Positions 6,906 through 37,995 of a stretch of 42,007 nt of DNA are shown here, in pieces. The stretch lies in NCBI RefSeq assembly GCF_009862265.1, contig NZ_WWGX01000009.1, forward strand, positions 11,516-53,522. Reading direction: 5' to 3'. The notes under the pieces are model-generated. The model had not been told where the DNA came from, searched no databases, and saw nothing but the letters and a program-made list of their open reading frames with translations. Positions within the stretch are counted from its first letter, which is position 1; the number at the start of each line of letters is the position of its first letter. The stretch is from Streptomyces sp. SID8352. GTDB lineage: Bacteria; Actinomycetota; Actinomycetes; Streptomycetales; Streptomycetaceae. A program made the translations under genes and the position numbers.

Positions 6906-6909
6906 GCCC

Positions 6910-7695: not shown

Positions 7696-7774
7696 GGAGT
7701 GCCGGGCACCCCGCCCGAACCGGGTGCCGGACCCCCGGCGGCCCGGCCCGTCCCCATCGAAAGGAAATCGGACC

Positions 7775-8395: not shown

Positions 8396-8396
8396 G

Positions 8397-23540: not shown

Positions 23541-23903
23541 GCTGTCACCGTAGGCGACGGGTCCGGCGGGGACACTGGGGTTAGCCCCCGGCTCCGGCCG
23601 GGGGCGGGCGGGAGGGCCGGCGTCGGCGGGCGCGGAGCGGGACCGCCCGCCGGAGCAGCCGTTCCCGGCCGGTGCGGCCGGGCTGCCCGGACCCGGGCAT
23701 TCACCTTCCCTTTCCCCGTGCGGTTCCACCGTCCGGCGCCGGGGTTTGCGGCCCCCCGCCTTTCGGGGTTGACCGGTCCAGGACAGTCCGCTTTCGGTTG
23801 TTGCCACTCCTGATAGGGCTCCCTAACGTAGTTGACCGTGTCGGATTAAAAAACGGCGGGCAGTTGCCACTGGCGACCGCCAGGACGACGCGAGGGAGTG
23901 GGC
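23541..23903. other. Leader region of the biosynthetic cluster
   Basis: Two parts. 23541-23760 is GC-rich and featureless. From about 23790 the base composition turns towards AT, with a good promoter (23801-23829), a TTGACC at 23832, a short A tract (GGATTAAAAAACGG, about 23842-23855) and a second copy of TTGCCACT near 23864 that repeats the -35 region. No gene. Confidence 0.55.
23801..23829 (+). promoter_or_regulatory. Probable promoter of the biosynthetic operon
   Basis: TTGCCA (23801-23806), 17-base spacer, TAACGT (23824-23829): a good vegetative-type Streptomyces promoter, 74 bases before the first gene. The genes from 23904 to 34331 are tightly packed, so this may drive all of them. Confidence 0.55.
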
Positions 23904-24773
23904 ATGGTCAGTTCTCTCATTCAACGGGATGAGCGGTTCCTGACGATCCTGGACCGGCTGAGCAGCAAATCGGTCGAGGAGTACTACAACCCGTACAAGC
24001 TCTTCGAATGGCCGGACACCCTGCCGGAGGACATGTGGTGGATGAGTCCCGAACTCACCACCACCCACGGGACACCGGCGGCCGAACGGCTCGGCCCGGA
24101 GCGGCTCCACGCGCTCTCGCGGCAGGAGAGCATCAACTTCTACAGCCTCAATGTGCACGGCATCCGCGAACTGCTCATCGAGGTGACCCGGCGCATCCAC
24201 ACGGCGGGTTTCGAAACCCCTTCGCAGTTCTTCCACCACTTCATCGGTGAGGAGAACGAGCACATGTGGTTCTTCGCGGAATTCTGCCTCCGCTACGGCG
24301 GGAAGATATACCGTCAGCCCGGCGGGGTCGCCGCCGACATTCCCCGGTCCCCCGTCGAGAGCCTGCTGGTCTTCTCCCGCATCCTCATATTCGAGGAACT
24401 GGTCGACCACTTCAACTCCCGGATGGCCCTCGACGACCGGCTGCACGACACCATCCGGGCCATCAACCGCATCCACCACCAGGACGAGTCCCGGCACATC
24501 GCCTTCGGCCGGGAACTGGTCGCCGCGCTCCACGCCGACGTCCGGAGGAACGCGGGCGAGCGGGAGCTGGACGACATCTCGGACTACCTCAAGCGGTACA
24601 TGACCTTCAGCTTCGAGTCGCTCTACAACCCGCAGGTCTACCGCGACGCGGGCATCGACAAGCCGCAGGAGCTGCGCCGGGAACTGCTGGCGGGGCCCGC
24701 CCGCGCCGAGTTCGAGGCATCCGTCTTCCGCAAGACCGCCAAGTACCTGCGGAAGACCGGGATCATCCGGTGA
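23904..24773 (+). CDS. AurF-like diiron N-oxygenase
   Basis: A 289-residue helical ferritin-like oxygenase of the AurF family. The ligand pattern is complete: a first-helix Glu (Glu75 or Glu89), Glu117-x2-His120 in GEENEHMWFF, Glu164 in LIFEEL, and His191-x3-Glu195-x2-His198 in HHQDESRHIAF. Spacings from Glu117 onwards equal those I recall for AurF (Glu136/His139/Glu196/His223/Glu227/His230). AurF and CmlI oxidise arylamines to nitro groups; relatives act on amines bound to carrier proteins or make azoxy bonds. ATG 23904 with AGGGAG upstream is preferred to GTG 23898. First gene of the cluster; its stop overlaps the next start (GTGA). Confidence 0.88.
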   Translation: MVSSLIQRDERFLTILDRLSSKSVEEYYNPYKLFEWPDTLPEDMWWMSPELTTTHGTPAAERLGPERLHALSRQESINFYSLNVHGIRELLIEVTRRIHTAGFETPSQFFHHFIGEENEHMWFFAEFCLRYGGKIYRQPGGVAADIPRSPVESLLVFSRILIFEELVDHFNSRMALDDRLHDTIRAINRIHHQDESRHIAFGRELVAALHADVRRNAGERELDDISDYLKRYMTFSFESLYNPQVYRDAGIDKPQELRRELLAGPARAEFEASVFRKTAKYLRKTGIIR

Positions 24774-25642
24774 GCCCCGGCCCGCACCGCACCGGGGACT
24801 TCACCCGGGGCCGGGACGGCACCGCCGGGGACGCGCTGGTGATCCTGCCGCCCGGGCCGACCGCCCTGCTGCGCGCCCTGGACCGGGTCTTCGCCGGATG
24901 GGGCACGGCCGCCGGAGCCGACGAGATCCTGCCGCCGCCCCTCTACCCGGTGTCCGACCTGGAGAAGTTCGACGTCTACGCGAACTTCCCGCACCTCGCC
25001 CTGGCCGCCGCCCCGCTCGACCTCGAACACGGCGGCGGCAAGCCCGAGGCGGGCCGTTTCCGCCCCGGCGACCTCCGGGGCGCCCGGCTCGGCCTGCCCC
25101 ACGCCACCTGCTACGGCGCCTACCTGTACTACGAGGACACCCGGCTCCCGGGCGACACCCTCGTGACGCTGGTCAACCGCTGCTTCCGGCACGAGGACCA
25201 CTACGACGGACTGCGGCGGCTGCTGAGCTTCCAGATGCGGGAGATCGTCGCGCTCGGCTCCTTCGAGCACACCCAGCGGGTGGTGACCCGGTTCGCGGAG
25301 GTGATCGCTGACTTCGCCGGGGCCCTCGGCCTGCCCCTGGACAAGCGGGCGGCCACCGACCCGTTCTTCGAGGCGGACGGGGCGCGGGCGCTGCTGGCGA
25401 GGCTCAGCCCGGTCAAGTACGAGTTCCAGGCCGGCGGCCTGGCCATCGCCTCGGTCAACACCCACCGCAACTTCTTCGGCGAGCGGTGCGGCATCCGCCT
25501 GGCGCCGGACGGCGGGCACGCCTTCACGAGCTGCGTCGCCTTCGGGCTGGAACGCTGGGTCGCGGTGCTGCTCGACCACCACGGCCGGGACGCCGCGCGC
25601 GCCCTGGACGCCGTGGAGCGGGCCGCGGGAGAGGTCTCCTGA
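24770..25642 (+). CDS. SerRS-like amino acid:carrier protein ligase
   Basis: A 290-residue class II aminoacyl-tRNA-synthetase catalytic domain with no tRNA-binding domain. Motif 2 is NRCFRHE (136-142), motif 3 is AFGLERW (257-263). Zinc ligands of the atypical SerRS type are in place: Cys114 (HATCYG), Glu158 (QMREI) and Cys255 (FTSCVAFG). These belong to the amino acid:[carrier protein] ligases described from Bradyrhizobium and Agrobacterium, which adenylate Gly or Ala and load it on the phosphopantetheine of a small carrier protein. TDPFF and the LAIASVNTHRNFFGE stretch also fit. The carrier protein two genes on is the expected partner. Starts inside the oxygenase stop codon. Confidence 0.85.
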   Translation: MSPGPHRTGDFTRGRDGTAGDALVILPPGPTALLRALDRVFAGWGTAAGADEILPPPLYPVSDLEKFDVYANFPHLALAAAPLDLEHGGGKPEAGRFRPGDLRGARLGLPHATCYGAYLYYEDTRLPGDTLVTLVNRCFRHEDHYDGLRRLLSFQMREIVALGSFEHTQRVVTRFAEVIADFAGALGLPLDKRAATDPFFEADGARALLARLSPVKYEFQAGGLAIASVNTHRNFFGERCGIRLAPDGGHAFTSCVAFGLERWVAVLLDHHGRDAARALDAVERAAGEVS

Positions 25643-25643
25643 C

Positions 25644-26024
25644 GTGGACGCGGGACGGGTCGGCATCGATCTGGTCCCCTACGGCAGGGTCCGGGAACTG
25701 CTGGCCGCCGACGGACGGCCGGCCCTGACCCGGATGCTGTCCGCCGAGGAACAGCGGCTCCTGCGCACCGGGCGGGAGCCGGACGTCCCCGGCATCGCCG
25801 GCCGGCTGGCCGCCAAGGAGGCCGTCTTCAAGCTGTTCCGGACCGCCGGGCAGACCCTGCCCTGGCAGGACATCGAGATCCTCCGGGAGGAGGGCGGCTG
25901 GCCCGTGGTGCGGCTGCGCGGACGCGCCGCCCGCCTCGCCGCCGAGTCCCTGGTCGGCGCCATCGCGGTGAGCATCGCGCACGACGACCCCTGCGCCATC
26001 GCGATCGCCTACTCCGGCGCCTGA
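25644..26024 (+). CDS. AcpS-type phosphopantetheinyl transferase (first)
   Basis: A 126-residue AcpS-like PPTase. Asp9 in GIDLVPYGRV and Lys58-Glu59 in RLAAKEAVFK are the Mg/CoA ligands of the family; MLSAEEQRLL corresponds to the FTxxE segment. It transfers phosphopantetheine from CoA to a serine of a carrier protein. It lies between the aminoacyl ligase and its presumed carrier protein, suggesting dedication to that protein rather than to the fatty-acid ACP. GTG start one base after the previous stop. Confidence 0.85.
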   Translation: MDAGRVGIDLVPYGRVRELLAADGRPALTRMLSAEEQRLLRTGREPDVPGIAGRLAAKEAVFKLFRTAGQTLPWQDIEILREEGGWPVVRLRGRAARLAAESLVGAIAVSIAHDDPCAIAIAYSGA

Positions 26025-26061
26025 CGGCCGCCCCGCCCCGGGCGCGCCCCGCCGGACCGCC

Positions 26062-26137
26062 GCACGGCCCCCCGCGCACCGCCGCCGCACGGCCCCACCG
26101 CGCACCGCCGCACGGCCCCACCGCGCCGCACGGCCCC
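26062..26137. repeat. Short GC-rich repeats before a carrier-protein gene
   Basis: GCACGGCCCC occurs four times (26062, 26087, 26110, 26128) within longer related units of irregular period (25, 23 and 18 bases), mostly continuing ACCGCGC. It fills most of the 176-base gap in an otherwise tight operon. Could fold into RNA structure; no gene. Confidence 0.6.
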
Positions 26138-26200
26138 ACCGCGCACCGGCGCACCGCACCGTCCCCACCCCGACAGGCCCACCCGAGCGAGGAGTTGGAC

Positions 26201-26440
26201 ATGGCTTCGGCAGGAATCGAAGACGTACGCGCGTGGATACTCGGCCGCCACCCGGACCGCACGTCCGTGTCGGACGACGAGAACCTCATCGAGAACCGGC
26301 TCGTCGACTCGCTGTCCTTCGTCGAACTCGTCTACACGATCGAGGGCGCGAGCGGCGCGGAGATCGACTTCGACGCCATCGACATCCAGGACTTCCAGAC
26401 CCTCTCGGCCATCGAGAAGGCGTTCTTCGCGACCGTCTGA
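26201..26440 (+). CDS. Freestanding carrier protein (first)
   Basis: A 79-residue acyl/peptidyl carrier protein. Phosphopantetheine attachment at Ser37 in NRLVDSLSFVEL; the second and third helices (GAEIDFDAIDIQDFQTLSAIEKAF) are acidic as usual. GGAG upstream of ATG 26201. Its place just after the SerRS-like ligase and a PPTase makes it the likely acceptor of the activated amino acid, as in the known aa:CP ligase pairs. Confidence 0.9.
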   Translation: MASAGIEDVRAWILGRHPDRTSVSDDENLIENRLVDSLSFVELVYTIEGASGAEIDFDAIDIQDFQTLSAIEKAFFATV

Positions 26441-26458
26441 CCCAGGAGGGAGCACACC

Positions 26459-27286
26459 ATGGAAGCCGTTTCCTACACGGCCCAGTGGACCGCGGCCGCC
26501 CGGGCCGTGGAGTCCGAGCGCGACGGCGACGCGCTGTTCACCGATCCCTACGCCCGGGACCTCGCCGCCCCGCGCGGCTTCGAACTGCTCGCGCGCTACG
26601 GCGGCGGAGGGCTGCTGCCCTTCATCGCGATCCGGACCCGGTACTTCGACGACGCCGTCGCGGACGTCCTGCGGGAGACCGGCGCCGACCAGATCGTCCT
26701 CGTCGCCGCCGGCATGGACACCCGCGCGTTCCGGCTCGACTGGCCCGCCGGCGCCACCGTGTACGAGGTCGACCACGCCGCGCTCATCGACGAGAAGCGT
26801 GAGCGGCTGCGGCGGCTGGGCGCCGAGGCCCGCGCCGACCGCCGCGAGGTGCGGGCCGACCTGGCCGGCGACTGGCTCCCCGCGCTGGCCGCCGCGGGCT
26901 TCGACGCCTCCCGGCCCACCGTGTGGATCACCGAGGGACTGCTGTTCTTCCTCACCGAGGACCAGGCCGCCGGACTGCTGCGCACCCTCGGCTCGGTCTC
27001 CGCGCCCGGCAGCCGCCTCGTGGTCGACTTCGTGAGCCGGGCCCTGCTGCGCAGCCCCTTCTCGCAGAGCTTCCTCCGGGGGCTGCGCGAGGACGGCACG
27101 CCCTGGCGCTTCGGCACCGACGAACCCGAGCGGTTCCTCGCCGGGACCGGCTGGAAGACGCACGAGGTGCGCGAGCCCGGCGAACCCGGCGCGGGCGAGG
27201 GCCGCTGGCCCTACCAGGTGCAGCCGCGCGAGCGGCGCGGCGCCTCGCGGAGCTGGCTGGTGCGCGCCGAGTACGTCGGGGAGTGA
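26459..27286 (+). CDS. SAM-dependent methyltransferase, LCMT/PPM1-like
   Basis: A 275-residue class I methyltransferase of the leucine carboxyl methyltransferase-like family. SAM-binding motif AAGMDTRAFRL (from residue 83), acidic strand VYEVDHAALI, and WITEGLLFFLTEDQA after it. The IRTRYFDD segment near residue 58 is the family's Arg pair that grips a carboxylate in true LCMTs. In biosynthetic clusters members methylate carboxylates, hydroxyls or N-hydroxy groups; either fits here. GGAGG precedes the ATG. Confidence 0.88.
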   Translation: MEAVSYTAQWTAAARAVESERDGDALFTDPYARDLAAPRGFELLARYGGGGLLPFIAIRTRYFDDAVADVLRETGADQIVLVAAGMDTRAFRLDWPAGATVYEVDHAALIDEKRERLRRLGAEARADRREVRADLAGDWLPALAAAGFDASRPTVWITEGLLFFLTEDQAAGLLRTLGSVSAPGSRLVVDFVSRALLRSPFSQSFLRGLREDGTPWRFGTDEPERFLAGTGWKTHEVREPGEPGAGEGRWPYQVQPRERRGASRSWLVRAEYVGE

Positions 27287-27293
27287 GGCCGGC

Positions 27294-28244
27294 ATGCCGA
27301 CCGCCACCACCCTGGAACGCGTCGAGTCCTTCCTCCCCGACCGCAGCGTCCGCATCGACGACGTCGCGGACCGCCTCGGGCTCCGGCGCCCGGAGATCGG
27401 CGTCTTCCGGCGGATCTACGGTCTCGACCGGCTCCGCTTCGACCCGGACGGCGGGCTGTTCGACCTGGTCCTGCCCGCCGCCCGCAGGGCGCTCAAGGCG
27501 CTGCCCGAGGGACGCCGCGTCCGCTACGTCGTCTACGCGCACACCGTGCAGACCGTCACCCCGCCGCACATCGACGCCGCCCAGGTGATCCGCCAGGACC
27601 TGGGCCTGCACGACGCCGAGGCGTTCGCCCTCAGCCAGCAGGCGTGCGTCAGCAGCCTCGGCGCGATCGACCTGGCCGGGGAACTGCTGCGGGCCGAGGC
27701 CCCGGAGGGCGCCTACGCCCTCATGGTCACCGGTGAGCGGGCCTACTCCCCGAAGGTCCAGCTCATCCCCAACAGCGCCATCATGGCCGACGCCGCGGCG
27801 GCCTGCCTGGTCACCGTGGGCGGCCCCGGGGACGAGGTGAGGTCCTTCACCACCCGCACCCTGGGGGAGTTCGCCGCCGGACTGGAGATGACCCGCGAGC
27901 AGATCACGCGCTTCGGGCAGGTCTACGGCACCGTGCTCGGCGAGGTCATCCACGAGGCGGTCGCCGCCGCCGGACTGGACTTCGACGACATCGACCTCGT
28001 CGTGCCGCACAACGTGAACACGGTGTCCTGGCGGCAGACCATCAAGGCCATGGGCGCGGATCCCGCGAAGTTCTTCCTGGACAACATCCCGCGCTACAGC
28101 CACACCTACGCCTCGGACGTGTTCGTCAACTACACGACCCTGCGCGAGGGGGGCCGCCTGGTGGACGGCGGGCACTACGTCCTGGTCTCCGTGGGCCTGG
28201 GCGCCACCTTCGGCGCCATGGTCATCACCCACAGGGCGCGGTGA
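27294..28244 (+). CDS. KAS III-like condensing enzyme, Cys-His-His
   Basis: A 316-residue thiolase-fold enzyme like FabH. The N-terminal VESFLPDRSVRIDDVADRLGL and the nucleophile Cys118 in LSQQACVSSLGAI are typical, and His239 is in VVPHNVN. The residue expected to be the catalytic Asn (N274 of E. coli FabH, RHGNTSAAS) is His270 in RYSHTYASD, giving a Cys-His-His set more like KAS I/II. It could catalyse decarboxylative condensation or act as an acyltransferase, as some KAS III relatives in secondary metabolism do. Starts 8 bases after the methyltransferase. A degenerate homologue is encoded at 31347. Confidence 0.82.
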   Translation: MPTATTLERVESFLPDRSVRIDDVADRLGLRRPEIGVFRRIYGLDRLRFDPDGGLFDLVLPAARRALKALPEGRRVRYVVYAHTVQTVTPPHIDAAQVIRQDLGLHDAEAFALSQQACVSSLGAIDLAGELLRAEAPEGAYALMVTGERAYSPKVQLIPNSAIMADAAAACLVTVGGPGDEVRSFTTRTLGEFAAGLEMTREQITRFGQVYGTVLGEVIHEAVAAAGLDFDDIDLVVPHNVNTVSWRQTIKAMGADPAKFFLDNIPRYSHTYASDVFVNYTTLREGGRLVDGGHYVLVSVGLGATFGAMVITHRAR

Positions 28245-28248
28245 TCCG

Positions 28249-29727
28249 ATGACCGACCGCACGCGCCCCGCTCCGGCGGCCCCGGCCCCCTTCCCCGGCC
28301 TCGCCGGGGGACCCCCCGGCGCCGCGGACCTCGCCGGCACGGACCGCACCCGCACGGACCTCACCTACACCAAGGACCTGAAGGAGGCCCTCACCAAGGA
28401 CCGCGACGCCCGGTTCGTCTGGCTGTGCAACTTCGAGGTCGAACGCCGCTGGGCCCGCTCCTACACCGGACTGCCCGCCGTGCGGGGCTCCGCCACCACC
28501 GCCACCGTGCAGCGCATGGAGGAACTCGGCGCGCTGCTCGCCGAGCCCGGGGACCACCTGCTGCTGGACCGCCCCCTGGACGAGGGCTACCGGCGCTACG
28601 CCGACGCCCTGGGCCTCGGCACCCCCACCGGACTCGTCACCCCGGCACCGGCGGGCGACGCGGGCACCGCCGAGGCCGTGTCGCGCTCCCCGGAACTCCT
28701 CGACCGGCTGCGCGAGCTCGCCCGGCAGGGCGCCTGGCTCATGCCGATGGGCGTCTCCGACCAGGAGGAGCACCTGGCCCGGCTCACCGGCCTGCGCCTC
28801 GCGGTGCCTCCGGCCGCCGTCCACGAGCGGGTCAACAGCAAGATCTACAGCCGCCGCGTCACCGAGGAACTGGGCCTGCGCACCATCCCCGGCCACTGCT
28901 GCGAGACCGTCGGGGAGCTGCACCGCGCCCTGGACGAACGGTTCCGCGACGACCCGGGCCCGGTCGTCGTCAAGGACGCCTTCGGCGTCTCCGGCCGCGG
29001 GCTGGTGGTCCTCGACAGCCGCCGCAAGGCCGACCGGCTGCTGCGCATGGTCGACCGGCGGGCCGCGAGCAGCGGGGACGACCGCCTGCACGTCGTGGTG
29101 GAGGCGTTCCTGCCCAAACGGGCCGATCTGAACCACCAGCTCACCATCGACCGGGAGGGCCGGGTCCGCCAGGACTTCGTCAAACAGGCCATCACCGCGG
29201 GCGGCGTGCACCTCGGCCACGTCAGTCCCGCCGGCCTCGACGCCGTTCAGCGGGACGAACTCGCGGCGACGGCGCAGGCGTTGGGCGGGAGGCTGTACGA
29301 GGACGGCTTCACCGGCATCGTCGGTGTCGACGCGCTGCTCGGCGCGGACGGGCTCGTCTATCCGGTGCTGGAGATCAACGCCCGTCTCAACATGTCCAGT
29401 TACCAGGGCAGGGTCACCGAGCTGTTCGGCCCCGGGCAGGGGATCACGCTCGCCCGCCACCACACCCTGCGCCCGGCGGCCCCGGTCGCCTTCGAGGAGG
29501 TCACCGAGGCGCTAGGCCCGCTCCTCGACCCGCCGCTCGGCCGGGACGGCCTCGTCATCACCTGCTTCGGCACCGTCAACGCCCAGGCGCCCGCGTCCCC
29601 CGGGACCCCGTTCGAGGGACGCCTCTACACGATGCAGTTCGCCGCCGACCGGGCGGGACTGGACGCCCTGGACCGGCGGGTCACCGAGGCGCTGAGCCGC
29701 TTCGACACCACCGGGAGGACCTCATGA
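28249..29727 (+). CDS. ATP-grasp ligase (BtrJ-like role)
   Basis: A 492-residue ATP-grasp protein. The nucleotide-binding parts are VNSKIYSRRVTEELGL (Lys198), VVVKDAFGVSGRGL (Lys242 and the Gly-rich loop), VVEAFLPKRADLNHQL, and the metal ligands Asp361 and Glu375-x-Asn377 in PVLEINARLNMSSY. Such enzymes couple a carboxylate to an amine or thiol through an acyl-phosphate. Its place directly before a type IV PLP decarboxylase and a carrier protein matches butirosin, where BtrJ ligates L-glutamate to the carrier protein BtrI. I infer the same chemistry; peptide-bond formation is the alternative. Overlaps the decarboxylase by ATGA. Confidence 0.8.
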   Translation: MTDRTRPAPAAPAPFPGLAGGPPGAADLAGTDRTRTDLTYTKDLKEALTKDRDARFVWLCNFEVERRWARSYTGLPAVRGSATTATVQRMEELGALLAEPGDHLLLDRPLDEGYRRYADALGLGTPTGLVTPAPAGDAGTAEAVSRSPELLDRLRELARQGAWLMPMGVSDQEEHLARLTGLRLAVPPAAVHERVNSKIYSRRVTEELGLRTIPGHCCETVGELHRALDERFRDDPGPVVVKDAFGVSGRGLVVLDSRRKADRLLRMVDRRAASSGDDRLHVVVEAFLPKRADLNHQLTIDREGRVRQDFVKQAITAGGVHLGHVSPAGLDAVQRDELAATAQALGGRLYEDGFTGIVGVDALLGADGLVYPVLEINARLNMSSYQGRVTELFGPGQGITLARHHTLRPAAPVAFEEVTEALGPLLDPPLGRDGLVITCFGTVNAQAPASPGTPFEGRLYTMQFAADRAGLDALDRRVTEALSRFDTTGRTS

Positions 29728-31034
29728 CCGGCCCGCACCGCGTCCAGGGCATCGACATCACCGCACTCGCCGAACGGTTCGGCACCCCGCTCTACGTCTA
29801 CGACGCCGACGTCCTGCGCGACGTGTTCACCGGCCTGCGCGAGCGGCTGCACCCGGCCGTCGACGTCTTCTACTCCCTCAAGGCCAACCCCAACGTCGCG
29901 GTCTGCGAACGGCTCGGCTCGCTCGGTGCCGGTGCCGAGATCTCCTCGCTGGCCGAGCTGATGACCGTCCGGCGGGCCGGCATCGCCCCCGAGGACGTGA
30001 TCTTCCTCGGCCCCGGAAAGACCCCCGCGGAGCTGGAGGCCTGCGTCACCGCCGGCCTGTACGCCGTGGTCTGCGAGTCCCTCGACGAGGTCGCGGAACT
30101 GGAACGGCTCGCCGCCGCACACGACGTGGCCGACCTGCCGGTGCTGCTGCGGATCAACCCCGACTTCCGGACCAAGGGCTCCGGCCTCGCGATGAGCGGC
30201 AAGCCCCGCCAGTTCGGCATCGACGCCGAGGTGCTGCGCCGTTCGGCCGGGGCGCTCGCGGGACTCGGCCGGGTTCGGGTCCGGGGCTTCCACGCCTACA
30301 TGGGCACCCGGTTCCTCAACGCCGACGACATCGTCCACAACACCCGCGAGATCCTCGCCCTGTCCGGCGAACTCGCCGGGCGGCTCGGCATCGACCTGGA
30401 CACCGTGGACTTCGGCGGCGGCTTCGGCGTGGCCTACTTCGACAACGAGAAGGACCTCGACCTCGCCACCACCGTCGACGGCGTCAACGAGGCCGTGGAG
30501 TCCTTTCTGCGGGACCACCCCGGCTGCCGGCTCATCAACGAACTCGGCCGCTACCTCGCCGCGCCCTGCGGCACGTACGTCGTGCGCGCGCTGTACGTCA
30601 AGCAGTCGCTGGGCGAGACGTTCGTGATCGCGGACGGCGGCACCAACCACCACATGGCCGCCGTCGGCATCGGCAGCTTCGTCAAGCGCAACTTCCCCAT
30701 CCGCTCGCTGAGCCGCCCGGACGAGGACCCCGCGCACACCTACACCGTCACCGGGCCCCTGTGCACCCCCAACGACGTCGTCGGCAAGAAGGTCCGGCTG
30801 CCCCGCGTCGTGCCCGGCGACCTCATCGGCGTGGAGCGCTCCGGCGCCTACGGGCCCAGCGCCTCGCCCGGACTCTTCCTCAGCCACGGCTACCCGGCCG
30901 AGGTGATGGTGCACCGGGGCACGGCCCACCTGGTCCGCGAACGGGACCGCGCGGAGGAACTGCTCGCCAAGCAGCACACGGTGGGACCCGACCCCGACCC
31001 CGGCCCCGCCCCCGAATCCGGCGCCCGCCCCTGA
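29724..31034 (+). CDS. PLP-dependent decarboxylase (BtrK/DAPDC-like)
   Basis: A 436-residue fold-type III (alanine-racemase fold) decarboxylase. PLP Lys53 in FYSLKANPN, His190 in FHAYMGTR, the phosphate loop FGGGFG (230-235), Glu273 in NELGRYL, and Cys347 in CTPNDVVG, which reaches the partner active site in the dimer. The family includes DAP, ornithine and arginine decarboxylases and BtrK, which decarboxylates glutamyl bound to its carrier protein to give gamma-aminobutyryl-S-BtrI. The neighbouring ATP-grasp and carrier-protein genes favour the BtrK role. The C terminus has about 20 extra Pro-rich residues. Not lysA: that role would not be expected here. Confidence 0.85.
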   Translation: MTGPHRVQGIDITALAERFGTPLYVYDADVLRDVFTGLRERLHPAVDVFYSLKANPNVAVCERLGSLGAGAEISSLAELMTVRRAGIAPEDVIFLGPGKTPAELEACVTAGLYAVVCESLDEVAELERLAAAHDVADLPVLLRINPDFRTKGSGLAMSGKPRQFGIDAEVLRRSAGALAGLGRVRVRGFHAYMGTRFLNADDIVHNTREILALSGELAGRLGIDLDTVDFGGGFGVAYFDNEKDLDLATTVDGVNEAVESFLRDHPGCRLINELGRYLAAPCGTYVVRALYVKQSLGETFVIADGGTNHHMAAVGIGSFVKRNFPIRSLSRPDEDPAHTYTVTGPLCTPNDVVGKKVRLPRVVPGDLIGVERSGAYGPSASPGLFLSHGYPAEVMVHRGTAHLVRERDRAEELLAKQHTVGPDPDPGPAPESGARP

Positions 31035-31074
31035 CCCCCGCCGCCCCGCCCCCGCCACGCCGAAGGAGAAGCAC

Positions 31075-31335
31075 ATGGAACGCCACACCGCGGTCGTCGC
31101 CATCGAGACGGCCCTGAGCGAGGTGCTGGAACGTCCCGTCAGCGGACTCACCGAGGGCACCCGGCTCTTCGACGACCTGCACCTGGACTCCACCTCGGTC
31201 CTGGAGATGCTGATGGCACTGGAGGACGCCATCGACATCTCCGTCGACCCGGAGAACCTCGACATGGAGGACTTCGCCTCGGTCGGCAGCCTCACCGACT
31301 ACGTCCTGTCGCAGCAGGCCCCGAGCGGAGTGTGA
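31075..31335 (+). CDS. Freestanding carrier protein (second, BtrI-like role)
   Basis: An 86-residue carrier protein with Ser39 in DDLHLDSTSVLEML, the 4'-phosphopantetheine site. AAGGAG precedes the ATG. It differs from the first carrier protein by the DST rather than DSL motif and by its acidic second half (VDPENLDMEDFASVGSL). Following ATP-grasp and decarboxylase genes, it is the likely carrier of a glutamyl/gamma-aminobutyryl group. Confidence 0.9.
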   Translation: MERHTAVVAIETALSEVLERPVSGLTEGTRLFDDLHLDSTSVLEMLMALEDAIDISVDPENLDMEDFASVGSLTDYVLSQQAPSGV

Positions 31336-31346
31336 GGCACACCGCC

Positions 31347-32186
31347 ATGCCGACCCTCCTCGCCGCCTCCGGGGTGGTCTCCCCGCCCGCCCGGCCCTTC
31401 GACGACTCCCCGGAGGACCTCGCCCACCACCGCGCCCTGGCCGCCTCCTTCGGGGCCGAGGTGGAGGAGCGACTGCTCCGCGACGGCCCCAACGTCGGCC
31501 ACCGCGACCTCGTGGACCGCCTCGCCCGCGCCGACGGCGTCCGGGACAGCGACCCCGATCTGGTCGTCGTCGCCCACGCCCTGCCCGACCTCACCCCCTT
31601 CACCGCCATCGCCCCCCACCTCGACCACCTGCTCGGCGGGCGGTCCGTCAACTTCGGCATCCACCAGCAGGGACTCGCCGCGCCGTTCACCGCGCTGCGC
31701 GCCATCGACGCCTTCCAGCGCGCCGGACGCGCCGGGCGGGCGGTGCTCGCCGTGCTGGAGCAGACGACCCTGCCCACCCGTTTCCCCCTGGTGCACGACA
31801 ACGGGCTTGTCGACTCCGGCGTCGTCCTGGTCCTCGGCACCGGTGACGGGCCCCGGCTGGCCGGCGTCGAGACCGTCCCCGCCACCGGCGACCCCGTGCG
31901 GCGGCTCGCGGAGCTGACCGCCGCCGACCCGGAAGGCACCCTCCTCGTCACCGGCCCCTGGACCGACCACGAGGCGCTCCGCCCCGTCACCGCCACGACG
32001 ACCCCCTACCGGGTGAACCGGGGCACCTACGCCACCGGGCTGTGGCTGGCCCTCGCCCGCCAGTGGCGGCTCTGGTGCCGGCACCACCGCACCGTGGTCC
32101 TCTGCGACACCGACCCGCGCTCCGGCGACACCCACGTCGCCGTGCTCGCCACCCGGTCCGCGCCCCCGGCGGGGGGACCGCGATGA
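31347..32186 (+). CDS. Degenerate KAS III homologue
   Basis: A 279-residue protein that aligns by eye with the active KAS III-like enzyme of the cluster but lacks its catalytic residues. VNFGIHQQGLAAPFTALRAI corresponds to the stretch around Cys118, with Leu110 at the nucleophile position; the VPH histidine segment is missing; NRGTYATG replaces RYSHTYASD, with Gly for His270. LVHDNGLVDSGVVLVLG matches the following strand. Such inactive partners occur in heterodimeric condensing enzymes (PqsB with PqsC, chain-length factors). ATG 31347 has GTGAGG at 9 bases; GTG 31332 overlapping the carrier-protein stop is the alternative. Confidence 0.65.
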   Translation: MPTLLAASGVVSPPARPFDDSPEDLAHHRALAASFGAEVEERLLRDGPNVGHRDLVDRLARADGVRDSDPDLVVVAHALPDLTPFTAIAPHLDHLLGGRSVNFGIHQQGLAAPFTALRAIDAFQRAGRAGRAVLAVLEQTTLPTRFPLVHDNGLVDSGVVLVLGTGDGPRLAGVETVPATGDPVRRLAELTAADPEGTLLVTGPWTDHEALRPVTATTTPYRVNRGTYATGLWLALARQWRLWCRHHRTVVLCDTDPRSGDTHVAVLATRSAPPAGGPR

Positions 32187-32752
32187 GCGCCGCGCGGGAC
32201 CGGATCGGCGCCTTCGCCACCGCCCTGGACGAGTGCCACGACGCGGCCCTGCCCGGCGGCGCGGTCCCCTCCGGCACCGGCTGGGCCGTGGCCTCGGCCG
32301 AACGGCTCACCGGCGGCGGTCCGCTGCCCGGCACCCACGGCCGGCTCGCCGCCCGCCGCGCCGGGGGACCGGCGGACCCGGCCGCGTACGGCACCTTCTG
32401 CGGAGCGCTGCTGCGCCTGCAGTGGCGGACCCTCGCCGAGACCCTCGACGACGCCGTGCACCGGCTCGGCGGCCGGGAGTCCGAGGGCGGCGCGCTGCTC
32501 GGCCGTCAACTCGTCCGGGGCGCCGTGGCCGACGTGGCCCTGGTCCTCGCCGAGTCGCACGACCTGCTGGACCTGCCCGGGCCGGGGCCCGCCCGGCGCC
32601 ACCGGGTGCACCGCGACCTGGTGGCCGCCGGACGGACCACGCTCCGGCTGCACGGGGCCCACGGCTTCACCGCCGAGGGACCCGGACCCCTGCTCCATCT
32701 GACCGAACTGCTGGGCAACACCTATCTGCACCCCGAGGCCGCCGATGACTGA
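32183..32752 (+). CDS. Short protein like an acyl-CoA dehydrogenase C-terminal domain
   Basis: A 189-residue helical protein. Residues 70-180 (LRLQWRTLAETLDDAVHRLGG, GAVADVALVLAESHDLLD, TTLRLHGAHGFTAEGPGPLLHLTELLGNTYLHP) look like the four-helix C-terminal domain of acyl-CoA dehydrogenases, including a HGAHGF turn like the usual HGGxGY, but the flavin and beta domains are absent. It overlaps the preceding gene by ATGA and the full dehydrogenase by 8 bases, so they are translated together and may form a complex. I would not assign an activity. Confidence 0.65.
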   Translation: MSAARDRIGAFATALDECHDAALPGGAVPSGTGWAVASAERLTGGGPLPGTHGRLAARRAGGPADPAAYGTFCGALLRLQWRTLAETLDDAVHRLGGRESEGGALLGRQLVRGAVADVALVLAESHDLLDLPGPGPARRHRVHRDLVAAGRTTLRLHGAHGFTAEGPGPLLHLTELLGNTYLHPEAADD

Positions 32753-33905
32753 CACCCTGCCCCGGCGGGCCGTGCTGCTGCGCGACCACGTGCGCGAGGC
32801 CGCCGCCGGACTCCGCCCGGTCGGCCTGGAACTCGACCGCGATCCCACGGCCGTGGACCGGTGGCTGGACCTGCCCGCGGTCGACCTGATGCGCCGCAGC
32901 ACCGTCCCGTCGGAGTACCTGGCCGCACCGCTGCGCATCGGCCCGTACACCTACGACATGCGGTCCTGTCTGGAACACACCCTCACCATCGAGGAACTCA
33001 GCTACGGCGACGCCGGGTTCATGCTGGCCTGCCCGGGACCGCTGATGTCGGGCGTCGCCGTCGACGCGCTCGGCGACGACAAGCAGCGCCACGCCTACTA
33101 CGAACGGCTCGCCGGGCCCGGGCCCGTCTGGACCTTCTTCGGCCTGACGGAACCGGACAAGGGCTCCGCCGCCGCCGAGCTGCGCACCGAACTCCGCCCC
33201 GACGGCGACGGGTTCCGTCTCCACGGGGCCAAGCGGTACGTGGGCAACGCCGCGTTCGCCCAGCTCGGCGTCGTCTTCTGCCGGCGCGCGCCGGGCCCGC
33301 TCGGCATCGAGGCCGTCCTGGTGGACACCGCCGACCCCGGCTACCGCGCCGAACTGATCCCCACCGTCGGGCTGCGCGGCGCGCGGATCTCCGCCATCAC
33401 CCTCGACGGGGTGCGCGTCGAGCGCGAGCACGTCCTCGGCCACGACACGCTCAAGCCGAGCCGCCGGGGGCTCGTCGGCGCCATCCGCACCCTCCAGCGC
33501 TTCCGGCCGGTGCTCGCGGGCACCGCGCTGGGACTCACCCGTGCCGTCCTCGACCATGTGCGGGTGCGCCGGCCGGGCCTCGCGGGCGCCGCCCGGCACC
33601 GCCTGGAGGACCTCCAGGACCGGCTGGCCGCCGCCCGGCACCGCAACCACGCCGTCGCGGCGGCCATCGACGCGGGCACCGTGCGGGCGGACCGCGTCGC
33701 CGGGATCAAGACCCGTGCCGCCGAACTGGCCGAGGCCGCCACCCTGGCCGCCGCGGAACTGCTCGGCCCCGCGGCCCTGCTGGAGGACCCGTGGCTGGAG
33801 AAGGCGTACCGGGACGCGCGGGCCTTCGAGTTCATGGAGGGCACCGGCCACATCCAGCGGCTCGCGGTCTTCCAGGGCGTCACCAGGGGCACCTTCCTGC
33901 CCTGA
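32745..33905 (+). CDS. Acyl-CoA dehydrogenase family flavoenzyme
   Basis: A 386-residue protein with the full three-domain layout. TFFGLTEPDKGSAAAEL is the FAD/substrate segment of the middle part, FRLHGAKRYVGNAAFA the beta domain, and AYRDARAFEFMEGTGHIQRL the C-terminal signature; the catalytic base of MCAD-type enzymes would be Glu365. In clusters with carrier proteins, members desaturate acyl- or aminoacyl-S-carrier proteins (for example prolyl to pyrrolyl). Here it could desaturate or oxidise the chain carried by either carrier protein. Followed after 36 bases by a PPTase gene. Confidence 0.88.
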   Translation: MTDTLPRRAVLLRDHVREAAAGLRPVGLELDRDPTAVDRWLDLPAVDLMRRSTVPSEYLAAPLRIGPYTYDMRSCLEHTLTIEELSYGDAGFMLACPGPLMSGVAVDALGDDKQRHAYYERLAGPGPVWTFFGLTEPDKGSAAAELRTELRPDGDGFRLHGAKRYVGNAAFAQLGVVFCRRAPGPLGIEAVLVDTADPGYRAELIPTVGLRGARISAITLDGVRVEREHVLGHDTLKPSRRGLVGAIRTLQRFRPVLAGTALGLTRAVLDHVRVRRPGLAGAARHRLEDLQDRLAAARHRNHAVAAAIDAGTVRADRVAGIKTRAAELAEAATLAAAELLGPAALLEDPWLEKAYRDARAFEFMEGTGHIQRLAVFQGVTRGTFLP

Positions 33906-33941
33906 CGCCGCCCGCCGCCGACACAGAGACGGGAGCCGGAC

Positions 33942-34331
33942 GTGTGGATCGGCATCGACGTCCTCGCCGAGGACGAACTGGAGGGGCTGCTCGGCCGCCC
34001 CTGGTTCCGCGCCTATGTCTACGACGCCGGCGAGCTCGCCCTCGCCGACGGTCTCGGGGCCGGCCGCGCCCGCGAGTTCCTCACCGGGCGGTTCGCCGCG
34101 AAGGAGGCCGCGCTCAAGGTCATCGGCACCGGGGTGCGGGCCGGGGTGACGCCCCGGCAGGTGGCCGTTCTGCGCGACGGGAACGGCGGCCCGGTCGTGC
34201 GGCTCTCCGACGCCGCCGCCCGGCACGCGCGGGAGCGGGGCATCGGCACCGTCCGGGTCTCCATCGCCCACAAGCGGGGCCTGGTGGTGGCCGCGGCGAT
34301 CGGCGTCCCGGACCCCGCCCCGCCGCCCTGA
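33942..34331 (+). CDS. AcpS-type phosphopantetheinyl transferase (second)
   Basis: A 129-residue PPTase with Asp6 in WIGIDVLAEDEL and Lys54-Glu55 in GRFAAKEAALKVIGTG, the CoA/Mg motif of AcpS. GTG start with GGGAG upstream. It is a separate paralogue from the first AcpS of the cluster, presumably matched to the second carrier protein. Last gene of the rightward operon; a stem-loop follows. Confidence 0.85.
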   Translation: MWIGIDVLAEDELEGLLGRPWFRAYVYDAGELALADGLGAGRAREFLTGRFAAKEAALKVIGTGVRAGVTPRQVAVLRDGNGGPVVRLSDAAARHARERGIGTVRVSIAHKRGLVVAAAIGVPDPAPPP

Positions 34332-34353
34332 CAGGTGCGGCGGGGCGGGGTCC

Positions 34354-34382
34354 GGCGGGGTGCCCGGCCGGGCGGCCCCGCC
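34354..34382. terminator. Terminator between converging genes of the cluster
   Basis: GGCGGGG (34354-34360) pairs with CCCCGCC (34376-34382), and GCCCGG with CCGGGC inside it. It lies between the stops of the second PPTase and the regulator, so it may serve both strands. Confidence 0.5.
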
Positions 34383-34387
34383 GGGGC

Positions 34388-35509
34388 TCAGCCGACGAGA
34401 CCGTCGACCAGGCCGGCGTTGGCCGCGGCGACGCCCGCCTGGAAGCGGCTCTCGGCGCTCAGCTCCTCCATGATCACGGAGATGTGGCGCCGCAGCGTCC
34501 GCGAGGAGATCCCGACCCGGCGGGCGATGACGTCGTCCTTGAGGCCCGAGGCGAGCATCCGCAGGATCGAGCCCTTGACGCTGTCGAGGGCCGATTCCGG
34601 CGGATTGCCCCCGGTGAAGGCGCACGCGGACTGCCAGACGTTCTCGAACAGGCCCCGCAGGAGATTCACGATCACCGGCTCGTACACGGCGGTGACCAGG
34701 GGCCCGCGGCCGGCCGCCGAGTCGGTCGGCAGGAAGGCCGCCTCGTGGTCGACGACGACGAGGAAGTGCGCGATCTCCTCGGAGGTGCGGACGTCGACCC
34801 CCGCGTCCCGGTTCTGGTGCAGGGTGGCGCGGAAACTCGGGTGGGACATGGCGGTGTGCGGGAAGAGGGTGCGCAGGGCCACCCCGCGCTGGGCCGCCTC
34901 CTGGGAGAGCACCTCGGTCTCGGTCAGCAGATTGGTCTCGTGGCTGCTCACCGGCCACATGGTCAGGATCTCGTCCGAGCCGCGGCGGATGGAGTCGGCC
35001 AGCCGCAGCGTCACCTCGCGCGGGTCCTCCAGGATGGCGACCAGCTCACCGCGCCGCTGCGAGCGCTGGTGCCGCTGGTAGGAGGCGAGGAAGCGGCCCA
35101 GCCGCTGGTGGATGCAGGCCACCTCGCGCCGCTTCTCGTGGATCAGCGCCTCGACCGGCAGGACGAGTTCGACCTGCGCGGAGTCCGGGTCGGTGGCGGT
35201 GTAGGTCAGCTGTTCCGCGCAGTACCGGACCAGTTTGAGATCACGCAGGCGCGTCATGATCCATTCGGCCGTCGCCACCGGCAGGCCGAGGGCGGTGGCC
35301 GTCTCCCGCGCGGTCACGGCGTGGCGGGAGAGCGCGTACTCGTAGGCGCGGACCGAGAGTTCGTCGTCGCTCCCGTCGCGCCGCGGCAGCGCCGCTGGGC
35401 GTAATCGGGCGTCGCCGTCCGGTGCGGGGGCACGGGGTACGGGAAGGGGGTCGGGGGCGGACGGGGAGGGGGCGTGCGGCGCGCTGGGTGGGGGGATTTC
35501 CCGCGTCAC
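34388..35509 (-). CDS. TrmB/LuxR-type pathway regulator with a TTA codon
   Basis: A 373-residue regulator. After a Pro-rich leader of about 45 residues comes a winged-helix TrmB-like domain (about 50-110, with AYEYALSRHAVTARETATALGL), a middle ligand domain, and a C-terminal LuxR-type HTH (ILRMLASGLKDDVIARRVGISSRTLRRHISVIMEEL). This architecture is common among cluster-situated regulators in Streptomyces. Codon 36 is TTA (35404-35402), which needs the bldA tRNA; no later ATG or GTG precedes the first HTH, so the TTA is inside the true gene if GTG 35509 is the start. Downstream of the thioesterase gene by 26 bases, probably one operon. It likely controls the cluster. Confidence 0.85.
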   Translation of the reverse strand: MTREIPPPSAPHAPSPSAPDPLPVPRAPAPDGDARLRPAALPRRDGSDDELSVRAYEYALSRHAVTARETATALGLPVATAEWIMTRLRDLKLVRYCAEQLTYTATDPDSAQVELVLPVEALIHEKRREVACIHQRLGRFLASYQRHQRSQRRGELVAILEDPREVTLRLADSIRRGSDEILTMWPVSSHETNLLTETEVLSQEAAQRGVALRTLFPHTAMSHPSFRATLHQNRDAGVDVRTSEEIAHFLVVVDHEAAFLPTDSAAGRGPLVTAVYEPVIVNLLRGLFENVWQSACAFTGGNPPESALDSVKGSILRMLASGLKDDVIARRVGISSRTLRRHISVIMEELSAESRFQAGVAAANAGLVDGLVG

Positions 35510-35535
35510 TGTTTTCCGTCCTGTTCATCCGGCGG

Positions 35536-36294
35536 TCAGTGAATGTCTGCCAAAAGGGTTTTGGTGATTTCTTCGGCCACGGTCTCCGTCTGGTCGTTCA
35601 GAAAGAAATGGCCGCCCGGGAAGCGCTTGACGCGGAAATCCGCGGAGGTGTGCCTGCGCCAGCCCTGCTCGCCGCCGTCCGTGACATAGGGGTCGGATTC
35701 GGCCAGCAGGAATGTCACGGGGCAGCCGACGGTCGCGTCGGGGGAGGCGAGATAGCGCGAGTTGGCGCCGTAGTCGTTCTTCACCACGGCCAGGACGGGG
35801 CGCAGGAACTTGGGTTTCTCGAACACCCTGGCCGGAATCGACCCGAGTTCCCGGAGTTCGGCCACGATCCCGGCGTCGTCGCGCGGGGTGTGCGCGCCCA
35901 GGCCGTCGGAGGGGGCGCGGCGCCCGGAGACGATCAGATGGACCGGGCCGCCGCCCGCCGCCTCCAGACGGCGGCTGACCTCGAAGGCCACCACCGAGCC
36001 GAAGCTGTGGCCGAACACGGCGAGCGGTGTCCCGATCCACTCGCGCAACTCCCGGGTGATCCGGTCGGCGAGCGGCCCGACGTCCGCGACCGGTGGCTCG
36101 TCACGGTTGCCGGGGCGGCCCGGGTACTGGACGGAGAGCGCCTCGACCGACCCGGGCAATGCGGCCGACAGTGCACTGTAGGCCGTCGCCGAGGCGCCCG
36201 CATAAGGGCAGCAGACCAGGCGGACGGCGGATTCTCGGTGGGGGGAGAGTCTTTGTATCCATGAATTGCCGCTTGCTGTCTCTGGGATCTCCAT
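35536..36294 (-). CDS. Type II thioesterase
   Basis: A 252-residue alpha/beta hydrolase of the TEII family. N-terminal RLVCCPYAGASATAY, nucleophile Ser97 in FGHSFGS, Asp201 in LLAESDPYV and His229 in PGGHFFL make the triad. TEII proteins hydrolyse wrong or stalled groups from carrier proteins, and some release intermediates. With no modular synthase around, it should act on the two freestanding carrier proteins; it could also release the product. GGAAGG lies upstream of the ATG, with a good promoter further back. Confidence 0.93.
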   Translation of the reverse strand: MEIPETASGNSWIQRLSPHRESAVRLVCCPYAGASATAYSALSAALPGSVEALSVQYPGRPGNRDEPPVADVGPLADRITRELREWIGTPLAVFGHSFGSVVAFEVSRRLEAAGGGPVHLIVSGRRAPSDGLGAHTPRDDAGIVAELRELGSIPARVFEKPKFLRPVLAVVKNDYGANSRYLASPDATVGCPVTFLLAESDPYVTDGGEQGWRRHTSADFRVKRFPGGHFFLNDQTETVAEEITKTLLADIH

Positions 36295-37742: not shown

Positions 37743-37774
37743 GGAGGGGCTCCGTGGTTCGATGGGCGTCGACT

Positions 37775-37835
37775 TGGTCGACAACCATCGTAATAGATGG
37801 TCGACATGTATCGTAGATGTCGATGGACATCGACA
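37775..37835. promoter_or_regulatory. Repeat-rich divergent operator (MFS/ArsR)
   Basis: TGGTCGACA occurs twice in direct orientation, 23 bases apart (37775 and 37798). ACCATC/GATGGT (37784-37801) and TGTCGAT/ATCGACA (37818-37835) are inverted repeats. All lie in an AT-richer 60-base patch 33 bases before the MFS start, where both divergent promoters must be. Probable ArsR binding region. Confidence 0.6.
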
Positions 37836-37995
37836 TAGGGACCCGCCGCACGCCGGGCGCGCGGCGGGTCCCGGTGGGCATCGACGGCGGTGGGGGTGGC
37901 GGCGGGCGCCGGTGCGGGGCCCGCCGCCGGTACGGACCGACGGGACGCGCATCCGGGATGCCGCCCGGCACGACGGGGTCGAACGGGAGAAGATC

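What the first reader, a model, noticed from the sequence alone, without database searches (positions are those of the whole stretch)
23801..36294. Compact carrier-protein cluster without modular NRPS or PKS
Seen: diiron N-oxygenase, SerRS-like ligase, two AcpS-type PPTases, two freestanding carrier proteins, methyltransferase, KAS III-like pair, ATP-grasp, PLP decarboxylase, acyl-CoA dehydrogenase pair, TEII and regulator, in tightly packed genes. Known: each family has a role in carrier-tethered amino-acid chemistry. Inferred: two amino-acid units are activated separately, one decarboxylated and one possibly N-oxidised, then joined or extended by the KAS III pair. I do not know any characterised pathway with this full set.
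Basis: partly seen in the sequence, partly recalled or inferred. Interest (0 to 1): 0.88.

Follow-up and report, generated by a model that had tools for sequence, protein, structure and literature searches.

The report
Enteromycin-type antibiotic gene cluster
This Streptomyces stretch carries a compact block of 13 same-direction genes, found in the same order in ten other actinomycete genomes, that likely makes the antibiotic enteromycin or a very close relative by joining an O-methyl-nitronate glycine unit to dehydro-beta-alanine on two free carrier proteins; both halves resemble pathways already described, so it looks like an instructive member of known chemistry rather than a new kind of pathway.

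Summary
The gene set is real: 13 packed genes (23904-34331), then a regulator, thioesterase, transporter and probably a PNPOx-like gene (to 39045). It reads as two known cassettes end to end. Genes A-E (AurF-type oxygenase, amino acid:carrier-protein ligase, AcpS, carrier, methyltransferase) fit the published route from carrier-bound glycine to an O-methyl nitronate. Genes F-L (KAS III, ATP-grasp, BtrK-like decarboxylase, carrier, Cys-less KAS III partner, two dehydrogenase-like proteins) fit the N-acyl-dehydro-beta-alanine cassette of bolagladins and autucedines. Joined, they predict enteromycin. All 13 genes lie colinear in 8 of 80 named loci found with gene A, including Streptomyces albireticuli and S. 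achromogenes (enteromycin-class producers by recall and by report). New here: the cassettes are separable, the acceptor half occurs with other donors (PKS, fatty-acyl type), and one of the two PPTase types is seen only with the acceptor half, though often missing there. The product is inferred; no chemistry was done, and the published enteromycin gene table could not be read.

The parts
23904..24773 (+). A: AurF-type ferritin-like diiron N-oxygenase (289 aa), predicted to turn carrier-bound glycine into a nitronate
   Evidence: PF11583 5.6e-32; E75, E117, H120, E164, H191, E195, H198 invariant in 18 of 18 aligned relatives, in a pattern like the seven residues listed for Dob3 in PMC12154687
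24773..25642 (+). B: amino acid:carrier-protein ligase (SerRS-like catalytic core), predicted to load glycine on CP1
   Evidence: NF005479 7.4e-29 (below its curated cut-off); PDB 3mey family 8.3e-16 with the Cys, Glu, Cys positions shared (that these are zinc ligands is recalled)
25644..26024 (+). C: AcpS-type PPTase that goes with cassette A-E
   Evidence: PF01648 1.2e-10; C-type AcpS in 41 of 50 loci without F and 27 of 30 with F
26201..26440 (+). D: freestanding carrier protein CP1 (DSL motif)
   Evidence: PF00550 0.0024 (under cut-off); D relative in 79 of 80 loci
26459..27286 (+). E: LCM/TIGR00027 O-methyltransferase, predicted nitronate O-methyltransferase
   Evidence: PF04072 5.6e-50, TIGR00027 7.8e-66; in the same locus as A in 74 of 80
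27294..28244 (+). F: KAS III-like enzyme, predicted to transfer the O-methyl-nitronoacetyl group to the amine of the CP2-bound beta-amino acid
   Evidence: PF08541 4.4e-16; Cys118, His239, His270 invariant in 24 of 24 aligned relatives
28249..29727 (+). G: ATP-grasp ligase with pre-ATP-grasp domain, predicted to load aspartate on CP2
   Evidence: PF18604 2.1e-15; G and H occur together in the same 12 of 80 loci at the thresholds
29724..31034 (+). H: PLP fold-III decarboxylase of the BtrK type, predicted to turn aspartyl-CP2 into beta-alanyl-CP2
   Evidence: BtrK (7ru7 2.2e-91, 2j66 3.0e-91) ahead of DAP decarboxylases (best 4.1e-44); best NCBIfam model TIGR03099 at 351 bits, under its cut-off of 478
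31075..31335 (+). I: freestanding carrier protein CP2 (DST motif)
   Evidence: PF00550 2.5e-9
31332..32186 (+). J: Cys-less KAS III-fold partner of F
32183..32752 (+). K: 189-aa protein with weak likeness to the C-terminal domain of acyl-CoA dehydrogenases, possible partner of L
   Evidence: PF00441 E 0.033; model weak (pLDDT 67) and no significant fold match
32745..33905 (+). L: acyl-CoA-dehydrogenase-type flavoprotein, predicted to desaturate the beta-alanyl part to the (E)-enamide
   Evidence: PF00441 2.5e-18; best NCBIfam models acryloyl-CoA reductase and prolyl-carrier dehydrogenase RedW, both far under cut-off; role by analogy to BolQ
33942..34331 (+). M: second AcpS-type PPTase, seen only with cassette F-J
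   Evidence: PF01648 5.2e-10; M-type AcpS in 0 of 50 loci without F, 14 of 30 with F, 3 of 3 type III loci, and in none of the 7 type IV loci printed
34388..35509 (-). N: LuxR-type (HTH) regulator
   Evidence: PF00196 1.6e-7; relative in 24 of 80 loci
35536..36294 (-). O: type II thioesterase, predicted releaser or editor
   Evidence: PF00975 9.2e-46; relative in 6 of 80 loci
36495..37970 (-). P: MFS exporter, probably part of the cluster (N-terminus not settled)
   Evidence: PF07690 1.1e-48; relative in 12 of 80 loci
38404..39045 (+). Q: PNPOx-like protein, probably part of the cluster, role unknown
   Evidence: PF01243 6.2e-11; relative in 21 of 80 loci

Best explanation
The locus is a colinear run of 13 closely packed genes, made up of two carrier-protein cassettes, that together likely make enteromycin (O-methyl-nitronoacetyl-dehydro-beta-alanine) or a very close relative. 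Inferred steps: B loads glycine on CP1 (D), primed by C; A oxidises the glycyl nitrogen to a nitronate; E methylates it to the O-methyl nitronate. In parallel G loads aspartate through its beta-carboxyl on CP2 (I), primed by M; H removes the alpha-carboxyl to give beta-alanyl-CP2. The F/J pair (active KAS III plus Cys-less partner) moves the O-methyl-nitronoacetyl group from CP1 via Cys118 to the amine on CP2, making the amide without an NRPS condensation domain. L, perhaps with K, desaturates the beta-alanyl part to the (E)-enamide (before or after acylation), O hydrolyses the thioester and P exports the product. Shown directly: gene identities, order, conservation, active-site residues, co-occurrence. 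Not shown: substrates, reactions, product.
For: (1) Front cassette: A has the pattern of the seven FDO N-oxygenase residues; A+B+D+E together in 74 of 80 loci; citing papers describe, for enteromycin (carboxamide), a glycine-derived nitronate made with a diiron oxygenase and O-methylated by a methyltransferase. (2) Back cassette: in bolagladin synthesis BtrK-like BolN, carrier BolC, KAS III homologues BolM/BolP and dehydrogenase BolQ are proposed to make the dehydro-beta-alanine; bolN deletion abolishes production and bolQ deletion gives dihydro products. H is BtrK-like at 2.2e-91. (3) F-L relatives sit in the same order beside an SbnB-like gene and an NRPS with 5 condensation-type and 4 AMP-binding hits and a TE in G015, as expected for the autucedine/enamidonin peptide Phe-D-Dpr-Dpr-Gly that carries dehydro-beta-alanine. 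(4) All 13 genes in 8 of 80 named loci, including S. albireticuli NRRL B1670 and S. achromogenes NRRL B-2120; S. albireticuli and S. eurocidicus genes are the window's nearest in trees of F, H and J. (5) The two PPTase types track the two cassettes: M-type in 0 of 50 loci without F.
Against: No chemistry. The published enteromycin-carboxamide gene table was not readable here, so identity with it is not shown. Substrate choice (Gly for B, Asp for G/H) is by analogy; BtrK itself uses glutamate. Bolagladin uses an adenylating enzyme (BolO) where this cluster has an ATP-grasp, and the roles of its KAS III enzymes are proposals. No solved structure matches A at E 0.01. No amidotransferase was seen among the 13 genes, so the carboxamide would need another enzyme. 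M-type PPTase is missing from 16 of 30 loci with F and from the 7 type IV loci printed. An NMO gene, expected beside A in denitrifying variants, was not seen beside the two E-less loci looked at (L124, L132). K is unexplained. That S. albireticuli makes enteromycin is recalled; none of the 30 of 36 rows shown holds both names.
Confidence: 0.77

Rival explanations
1. The same two-cassette logic, but G/H use glutamate, so the back unit is 4-aminobutyrate and desaturation gives an O-methyl-nitronoacetyl 4-aminocrotonate, a new homologue of enteromycin.
For: The nearest solved relative of H is named L-glutamyl-[BtrI acyl-carrier protein] decarboxylase; an ATP-grasp rather than an adenylating enzyme loads CP2, and recalled BtrJ is an ATP-grasp too.
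Against: G and H relatives (39% and 55% identical) sit in the G015 locus whose NRPS fits dehydro-beta-alanine peptides; bolagladin's BtrK-like BolN is proposed to act on aspartate.
Confidence: 0.1
2. The cluster makes enteromycin carboxamide or another downstream derivative rather than the free acid.
For: Enteromycin (carboxamide) work was done with S. achromogenes var. streptozoticus NRRL 3125, and S. achromogenes NRRL B-2120 has the same full set (L062).
Against: No amide-forming release enzyme among the 13 genes; a type II thioesterase is present.
Confidence: 0.25
3. A is an azoxy-, nitroso- or diazo-forming oxygenase on another amine and the product is a different N-oxygenated compound (valanimycin- or diazo-like).
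For: The FDO family also makes azoxy, nitroso and diazo groups.
Against: No flavin amine N-hydroxylase or hydrazine-type gene among A-M by Pfam; B matches aa:carrier-protein ligases better than tRNA synthetases; E is in the same locus as A in 74 of 80, as an O-methyl nitronate needs.
Confidence: 0.06
4. The KAS III pair makes a C-C bond (beta-ketoacyl extension) rather than an amide.
For: F belongs to the FabH family.
Against: In bolagladin and autucedine work the KAS III-like enzymes are proposed to N-acylate the carrier-bound amino acid; CerJ, recalled as an acyltransferase, is the last of F's 35 PDB matches (6e-4), which is weak support.
Confidence: 0.08

Closest known systems
Enteromycin carboxamide pathway, Streptomyces achromogenes var. 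streptozoticus (He & Ryan, Nat Chem 2021; known to me through passages of PMC9967187 and PMC11035981, the rest recalled)
   Same: Glycine-derived nitronate made with a diiron oxygenase, O-methylated by a methyltransferase; a S. achromogenes genome holds the full gene set (L062)
   Different: Its gene table was not seen; the window has no evident carboxamide-forming enzyme
Bolagladin dehydro-beta-alanine cassette (BolO/C/N/M/P/Q), Burkholderia gladioli, PMC7756342 (passages read)
   Same: Carrier-bound aspartate, BtrK-like decarboxylase, two KAS III homologues, acyl-CoA-dehydrogenase-type desaturase
   Different: Adenylating enzyme instead of ATP-grasp; fatty-acyl donor; feeds an NRPS
Autucedine / olenamidonin / enamidonin clusters (Zhang 2022, title only; PMC11204786 and PMC12843350, passages)
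   Same: N-acyl-dehydro-beta-alanine proposed to be made by a 3-oxoacyl-ACP-synthase-like enzyme (AutS/OleH) on a carrier; likely some of the type IV loci, with F-L at 28-60% identity
   Different: Lipid donor and NRPS continuation instead of a nitronate donor and hydrolysis
Butirosin AHBA genes BtrI/BtrJ/BtrK
   Same: ATP-grasp (recalled for BtrJ), carrier protein and PLP decarboxylase acting on a carrier-bound acidic amino acid
   Different: Glutamate to GABA, then hydroxylation and transfer to a sugar (recalled); no such genes here
PqsBC heterodimer
   Same: One KAS III-fold subunit with the active Cys paired with one that lacks it (recalled); PqsBC is among J's structural matches
   Different: Makes a C-C bond in quinolone synthesis (recalled); unrelated pathway

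Membership tests
Glycine-derived O-methyl-nitronate cassette (enteromycin type) | Ferritin-like diiron N-oxygenase with the seven conserved residues | tested here: met
   PF11583; all seven positions invariant in 18 of 18, pattern as for Dob3
Glycine-derived O-methyl-nitronate cassette (enteromycin type) | Carrier protein plus an enzyme that loads glycine on it | tested here: inconclusive
   Carrier D and aa:carrier-protein ligase B present; amino acid choice not tested
Glycine-derived O-methyl-nitronate cassette (enteromycin type) | Dedicated methyltransferase beside the oxygenase | tested here: met
   E in the window; A+B+D+E together in 74 of 80 loci
Glycine-derived O-methyl-nitronate cassette (enteromycin type) | Same genes as the published enteromycin carboxamide cluster | not testable with these tools
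   Paper not in the library; S. achromogenes NRRL B-2120 has the full set (L062)
N-acyl-dehydro-beta-alanine cassette (bolagladin/autucedine type) | BtrK-like carrier-dependent PLP decarboxylase with a freestanding carrier | tested here: met
   BtrK 2.2e-91 versus 4.1e-44 for the best DAP decarboxylase; carrier I; by homology only
N-acyl-dehydro-beta-alanine cassette (bolagladin/autucedine type) | Two KAS III homologues | tested here: met
   F by sequence, J by predicted fold
N-acyl-dehydro-beta-alanine cassette (bolagladin/autucedine type) | Acyl-CoA-dehydrogenase-type desaturase | tested here: met
   L; activity not tested
N-acyl-dehydro-beta-alanine cassette (bolagladin/autucedine type) | Adenylating enzyme of the BolO/VinN type for aspartate | tested here: not met
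   No AMP-binding gene among A-M; an ATP-grasp (G) stands in that place, as in the 8 type IV loci
Butirosin AHBA pathway | Flavin monooxygenase/reductase and acyl transfer genes after BtrK | tested here: not met
   No such Pfam family among A-M
Modular NRPS or PKS | Multi-domain synthase | tested here: not met
   No C, A, type I KS or AT domain protein among A-O

The most novel reading that the evidence does not exclude
Actinomycetes run a plug-and-play, NRPS-free amide-making platform: an acyl-donor cassette with its own carrier (nitronate here, a one-module PKS or a fatty-acyl loader elsewhere) docks onto a common acceptor cassette (KAS III active/inactive pair, own carrier, often its own PPTase, ATP-grasp/decarboxylase beta-amino-acid supply, optional desaturase), so whole series of small N-acyl-beta-alanine and other amides, including the uncharacterised type II family with no amino-acid loader, could be read off from which cassettes are joined.
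Probability: 0.5. Interest if true: 0.6.

Novelty: new member of a known kind. Interest (0 to 1): 0.4.

Why it matters
It turns an unassigned cluster into a testable product prediction, gives a candidate full gene set for enteromycin-class antibiotics including the enamide half, and indicates that two carrier-protein cassettes are combined differently in different genomes, which is useful for genome mining of nitronate and enamide natural products.

Tried and rejected
Selenocysteine idea: one search reported one TGA inside many 35-41% identical KAS hits; translation shows it is the terminal stop in the plus-strand rows that I could read (L021, L027, L029-L032, L035), so I see no recoding. In one search the minus-strand loci were translated on the wrong strand (genome-search loci are not turned); those rows say nothing.

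A hit to AurF or CmlI in the PDB was sought by sequence and by profile and not found at E 0.01; the residue assignment in A rests on pattern and spacing, and E165 next to E164 is invariant too.

hhalign of F against J gave only 30% probability (E 6e-4); the fold model settled it. The K model is too weak to use: its best rows are acyl-CoA dehydrogenases but with E above 1.

An SbnB-like gene beside the type IV locus of the window's own genome was not found (matches only on contigs C45 and C86), so that locus is not claimed to be an autucedine cluster; of 18 other genomes searched, two (G015, G048) have one within about 10 kb of F, and only G015 was examined further.

A nitronate monooxygenase (PF03060) was looked for near E-less loci: genomes of L132, L098 and L118 were searched, those of L124 and L116 are not held; the genes just upstream of A in L124 and L132 are not NMO by Pfam.

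Papers: He & Ryan 2021 and Zhang 2022 were not held. All 11 library papers with the word enteromycin were listed; I read passages of three of them (PMC9967187, PMC11205464, PMC11035981). Of PMC12154687, PMC7756342, PMC11284099, PMC10951976, PMC11204786, PMC12843350 and PMC9437257 I read passages only. A search for O-methyl-nitronate wordings found two citing papers.

Rows dropped before counts: L043, L047, L048, L050 are the same regions as L060, L082, L086, L093, and L054 is a near copy of L042; these and L074 (broken frames) were left out of the trees. The H tree also lacks L064 and L065, and the J tree L076 and most type IV rows, because no full row was extracted. In one search a gene counts as present at 35% identity over half its length; L065 (contig cut) counts as lacking K and L, so 'F-L complete' is a lower bound. 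The 80 loci are the best 80 of 188.

Full report
What is there. The stretch 23904-34331 carries thirteen plus-strand genes with gaps of -8 to 40 bases, except 176 between C and D: A AurF-type diiron oxygenase, B SerRS-like ligase, C AcpS, D carrier protein, E LCM-type methyltransferase, F KAS III, G ATP-grasp, H PLP decarboxylase, I carrier protein, J KAS III-like, K and L acyl-CoA-dehydrogenase-like, M second AcpS. On the minus strand follow N regulator, O type II thioesterase and P MFS exporter, then Q, a PNPOx-like gene on plus.

Front cassette. Scanning GTDB genomes with A (228 stretches, 188 relatives, best 80 kept) and scoring each locus with all window genes: of 80 loci, 79 have B, 79 D, 74 E, 69 C; 74 have A+B+D+E together, and only 30 have F. 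A-E is thus a unit by itself. Papers citing He & Ryan 2021 state that a nitronate intermediate in S. achromogenes var. [quoted passage not shown] I recall from the abstract of He & Ryan that glycine is activated on a carrier protein; the paper itself was not available.

Back cassette. [quoted passage not shown] deletion of bolQ gives dihydro products and deletion of bolN is not rescued by beta-alanine (PMC7756342 passages). VinO and FlvO do the matching decarboxylation for macrolactams. F, H, I, J, L are the same set; the loader differs (ATP-grasp G instead of an adenylating enzyme). The F-G-H-I-J-K-L order recurs at 28-60% identity in other Streptomyces loci (type IV: 8 loci, of which L055 shows no K). 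In the three of these examined by Pfam there are AMP-binding enzymes or further acyl-CoA dehydrogenases, MatE exporters, a condensation domain, or a PPTase of another type. One more (G015) has an SbnB-like gene and an NRPS with five condensation-type and four AMP-binding hits plus TE, which fits the four-residue Phe-D-Dpr-Dpr-Gly peptide of autucedines/olenamidonins, whose dehydro-beta-alanine is proposed to be acylated by a 3-oxoacyl-ACP-synthase-like enzyme (PMC11204786). This link is by module count, not by identity to the published aut genes.

Putting the halves together. O-methyl-nitronoacetyl on CP1 plus beta-alanyl on CP2, joined by F/J, desaturated by L and hydrolysed, is enteromycin, C6H8N2O5 (structure recalled; mass). 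All of A-M occur in 8 of the 80 loci: S. albireticuli NRRL B1670, S. eurythermus, Kitasatospora sp. MAA4, S. achromogenes NRRL B-2120, Saccharothrix sp. ST-888, Streptomyces sp. NRRL S-31, S. eurocidicus, K. mediocidica, and in two unnamed Streptomyces genomes (G090, G066). S. albireticuli is, from recall, the original enteromycin source; a variety of S. achromogenes is reported for it. In trees of F, H and J the window's nearest rows are S. albireticuli and S. eurocidicus each time.

Cassette combinations. Among the 80 loci, 30 have F: 8 complete, 4 with G and H but no L (one cut by a contig end), 17 with F and J but no G or H (type II), and L074 with broken frames. In 295 Streptomyces genomes, the window's included, F relatives at E 1e-20 occur in 29. 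Type III loci (G049, G124, G126) have F twice, H, I, J, M and no A-E; in G126 a one-module PKS (KS-AT-DH-KR-ACP-TE) precedes them. Type II loci add a freestanding condensation domain (3 of 3 examined). F trees separate these types with support (II 99/96, III 98/92, IV 100/100), but weakly for type I (82/51; 78% of bootstrap trees), and the tool warns of long branches. The AcpS genes follow the cassettes in part: C-type in 41 of 50 loci without F and 27 of 30 with F; M-type in 0 of 50 without F, 14 of 30 with F, and 3 of 3 type III loci, but neither type in the 7 type IV loci printed.

Limits. Product, substrates and reaction order are inferred. Aspartate rather than glutamate is favoured by the cassette's company, not by a test. 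The published enteromycin gene table was not available, so the novelty call 'new member of a known kind' could become 'already known' on reading it.

Noticed in passing
L072, L075-L082, L084, L086-L088, L090, L091, L093, L111 (17 of 80 loci): Type II clusters: nitronate cassette genes plus F, CP2 and J but no ATP-grasp, decarboxylase or desaturase; a freestanding condensation domain was seen in the 3 type II loci examined (L047, L048, L049). What is loaded on CP2 is unknown, so a different nitronate product is likely.
   Followed up: partly
G000:C76:22001-40000 (L039), the window's own genome: A second locus with F-G-H-I-J-K-L relatives (34-60% identity, J and K only in part), AMP-binding enzyme, MatE exporter and condensation domain; likely an N-acyl-dehydro-beta-alanine peptide cluster, without an SbnB-like gene on that contig.
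   Followed up: partly
L051, L052, L053 (G049, G124, G126): Type III loci: tandem F copies with H, I, J, M and no nitronate cassette; in L053 a one-module PKS lies just upstream, suggesting a polyketide donor for the same amide chemistry.
   Followed up: partly
window 38404-39045: PNPOx-like protein whose relatives lie in the same locus as A in 21 of 80 loci; possible self-protection or accessory oxidoreductase, untested.
   Followed up: partly
window 26025-26200: Repetitive GC-rich stretch (copies around GCACGGCCCCACCGCG) between AcpS C and carrier D, the only long gap in the gene block.
   Followed up: no
window 40157-41716: Another PLP fold-III decarboxylase (519 aa, PF02784) with a low-complexity N-terminus beside the cluster; no sign that it belongs to it.
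   Followed up: no
window 5181-9338: Urease alpha subunit and UreF, UreG-like (CobW family) and UreD genes in a row; ordinary.
   Followed up: no
plasmid records: H relatives (E 1e-40 or better) occur on 87 plasmid records, 16 of them Streptomyces, 5 at 60-80% identity; whether the rest of a cassette is there was not looked at.
   Followed up: no
L067 and L119 (Streptomyces sp. HNM0574): Two different A genes with nitronate-cassette neighbours (80% and 60% identical to A) about 12 kb apart on one contig.
   Followed up: no
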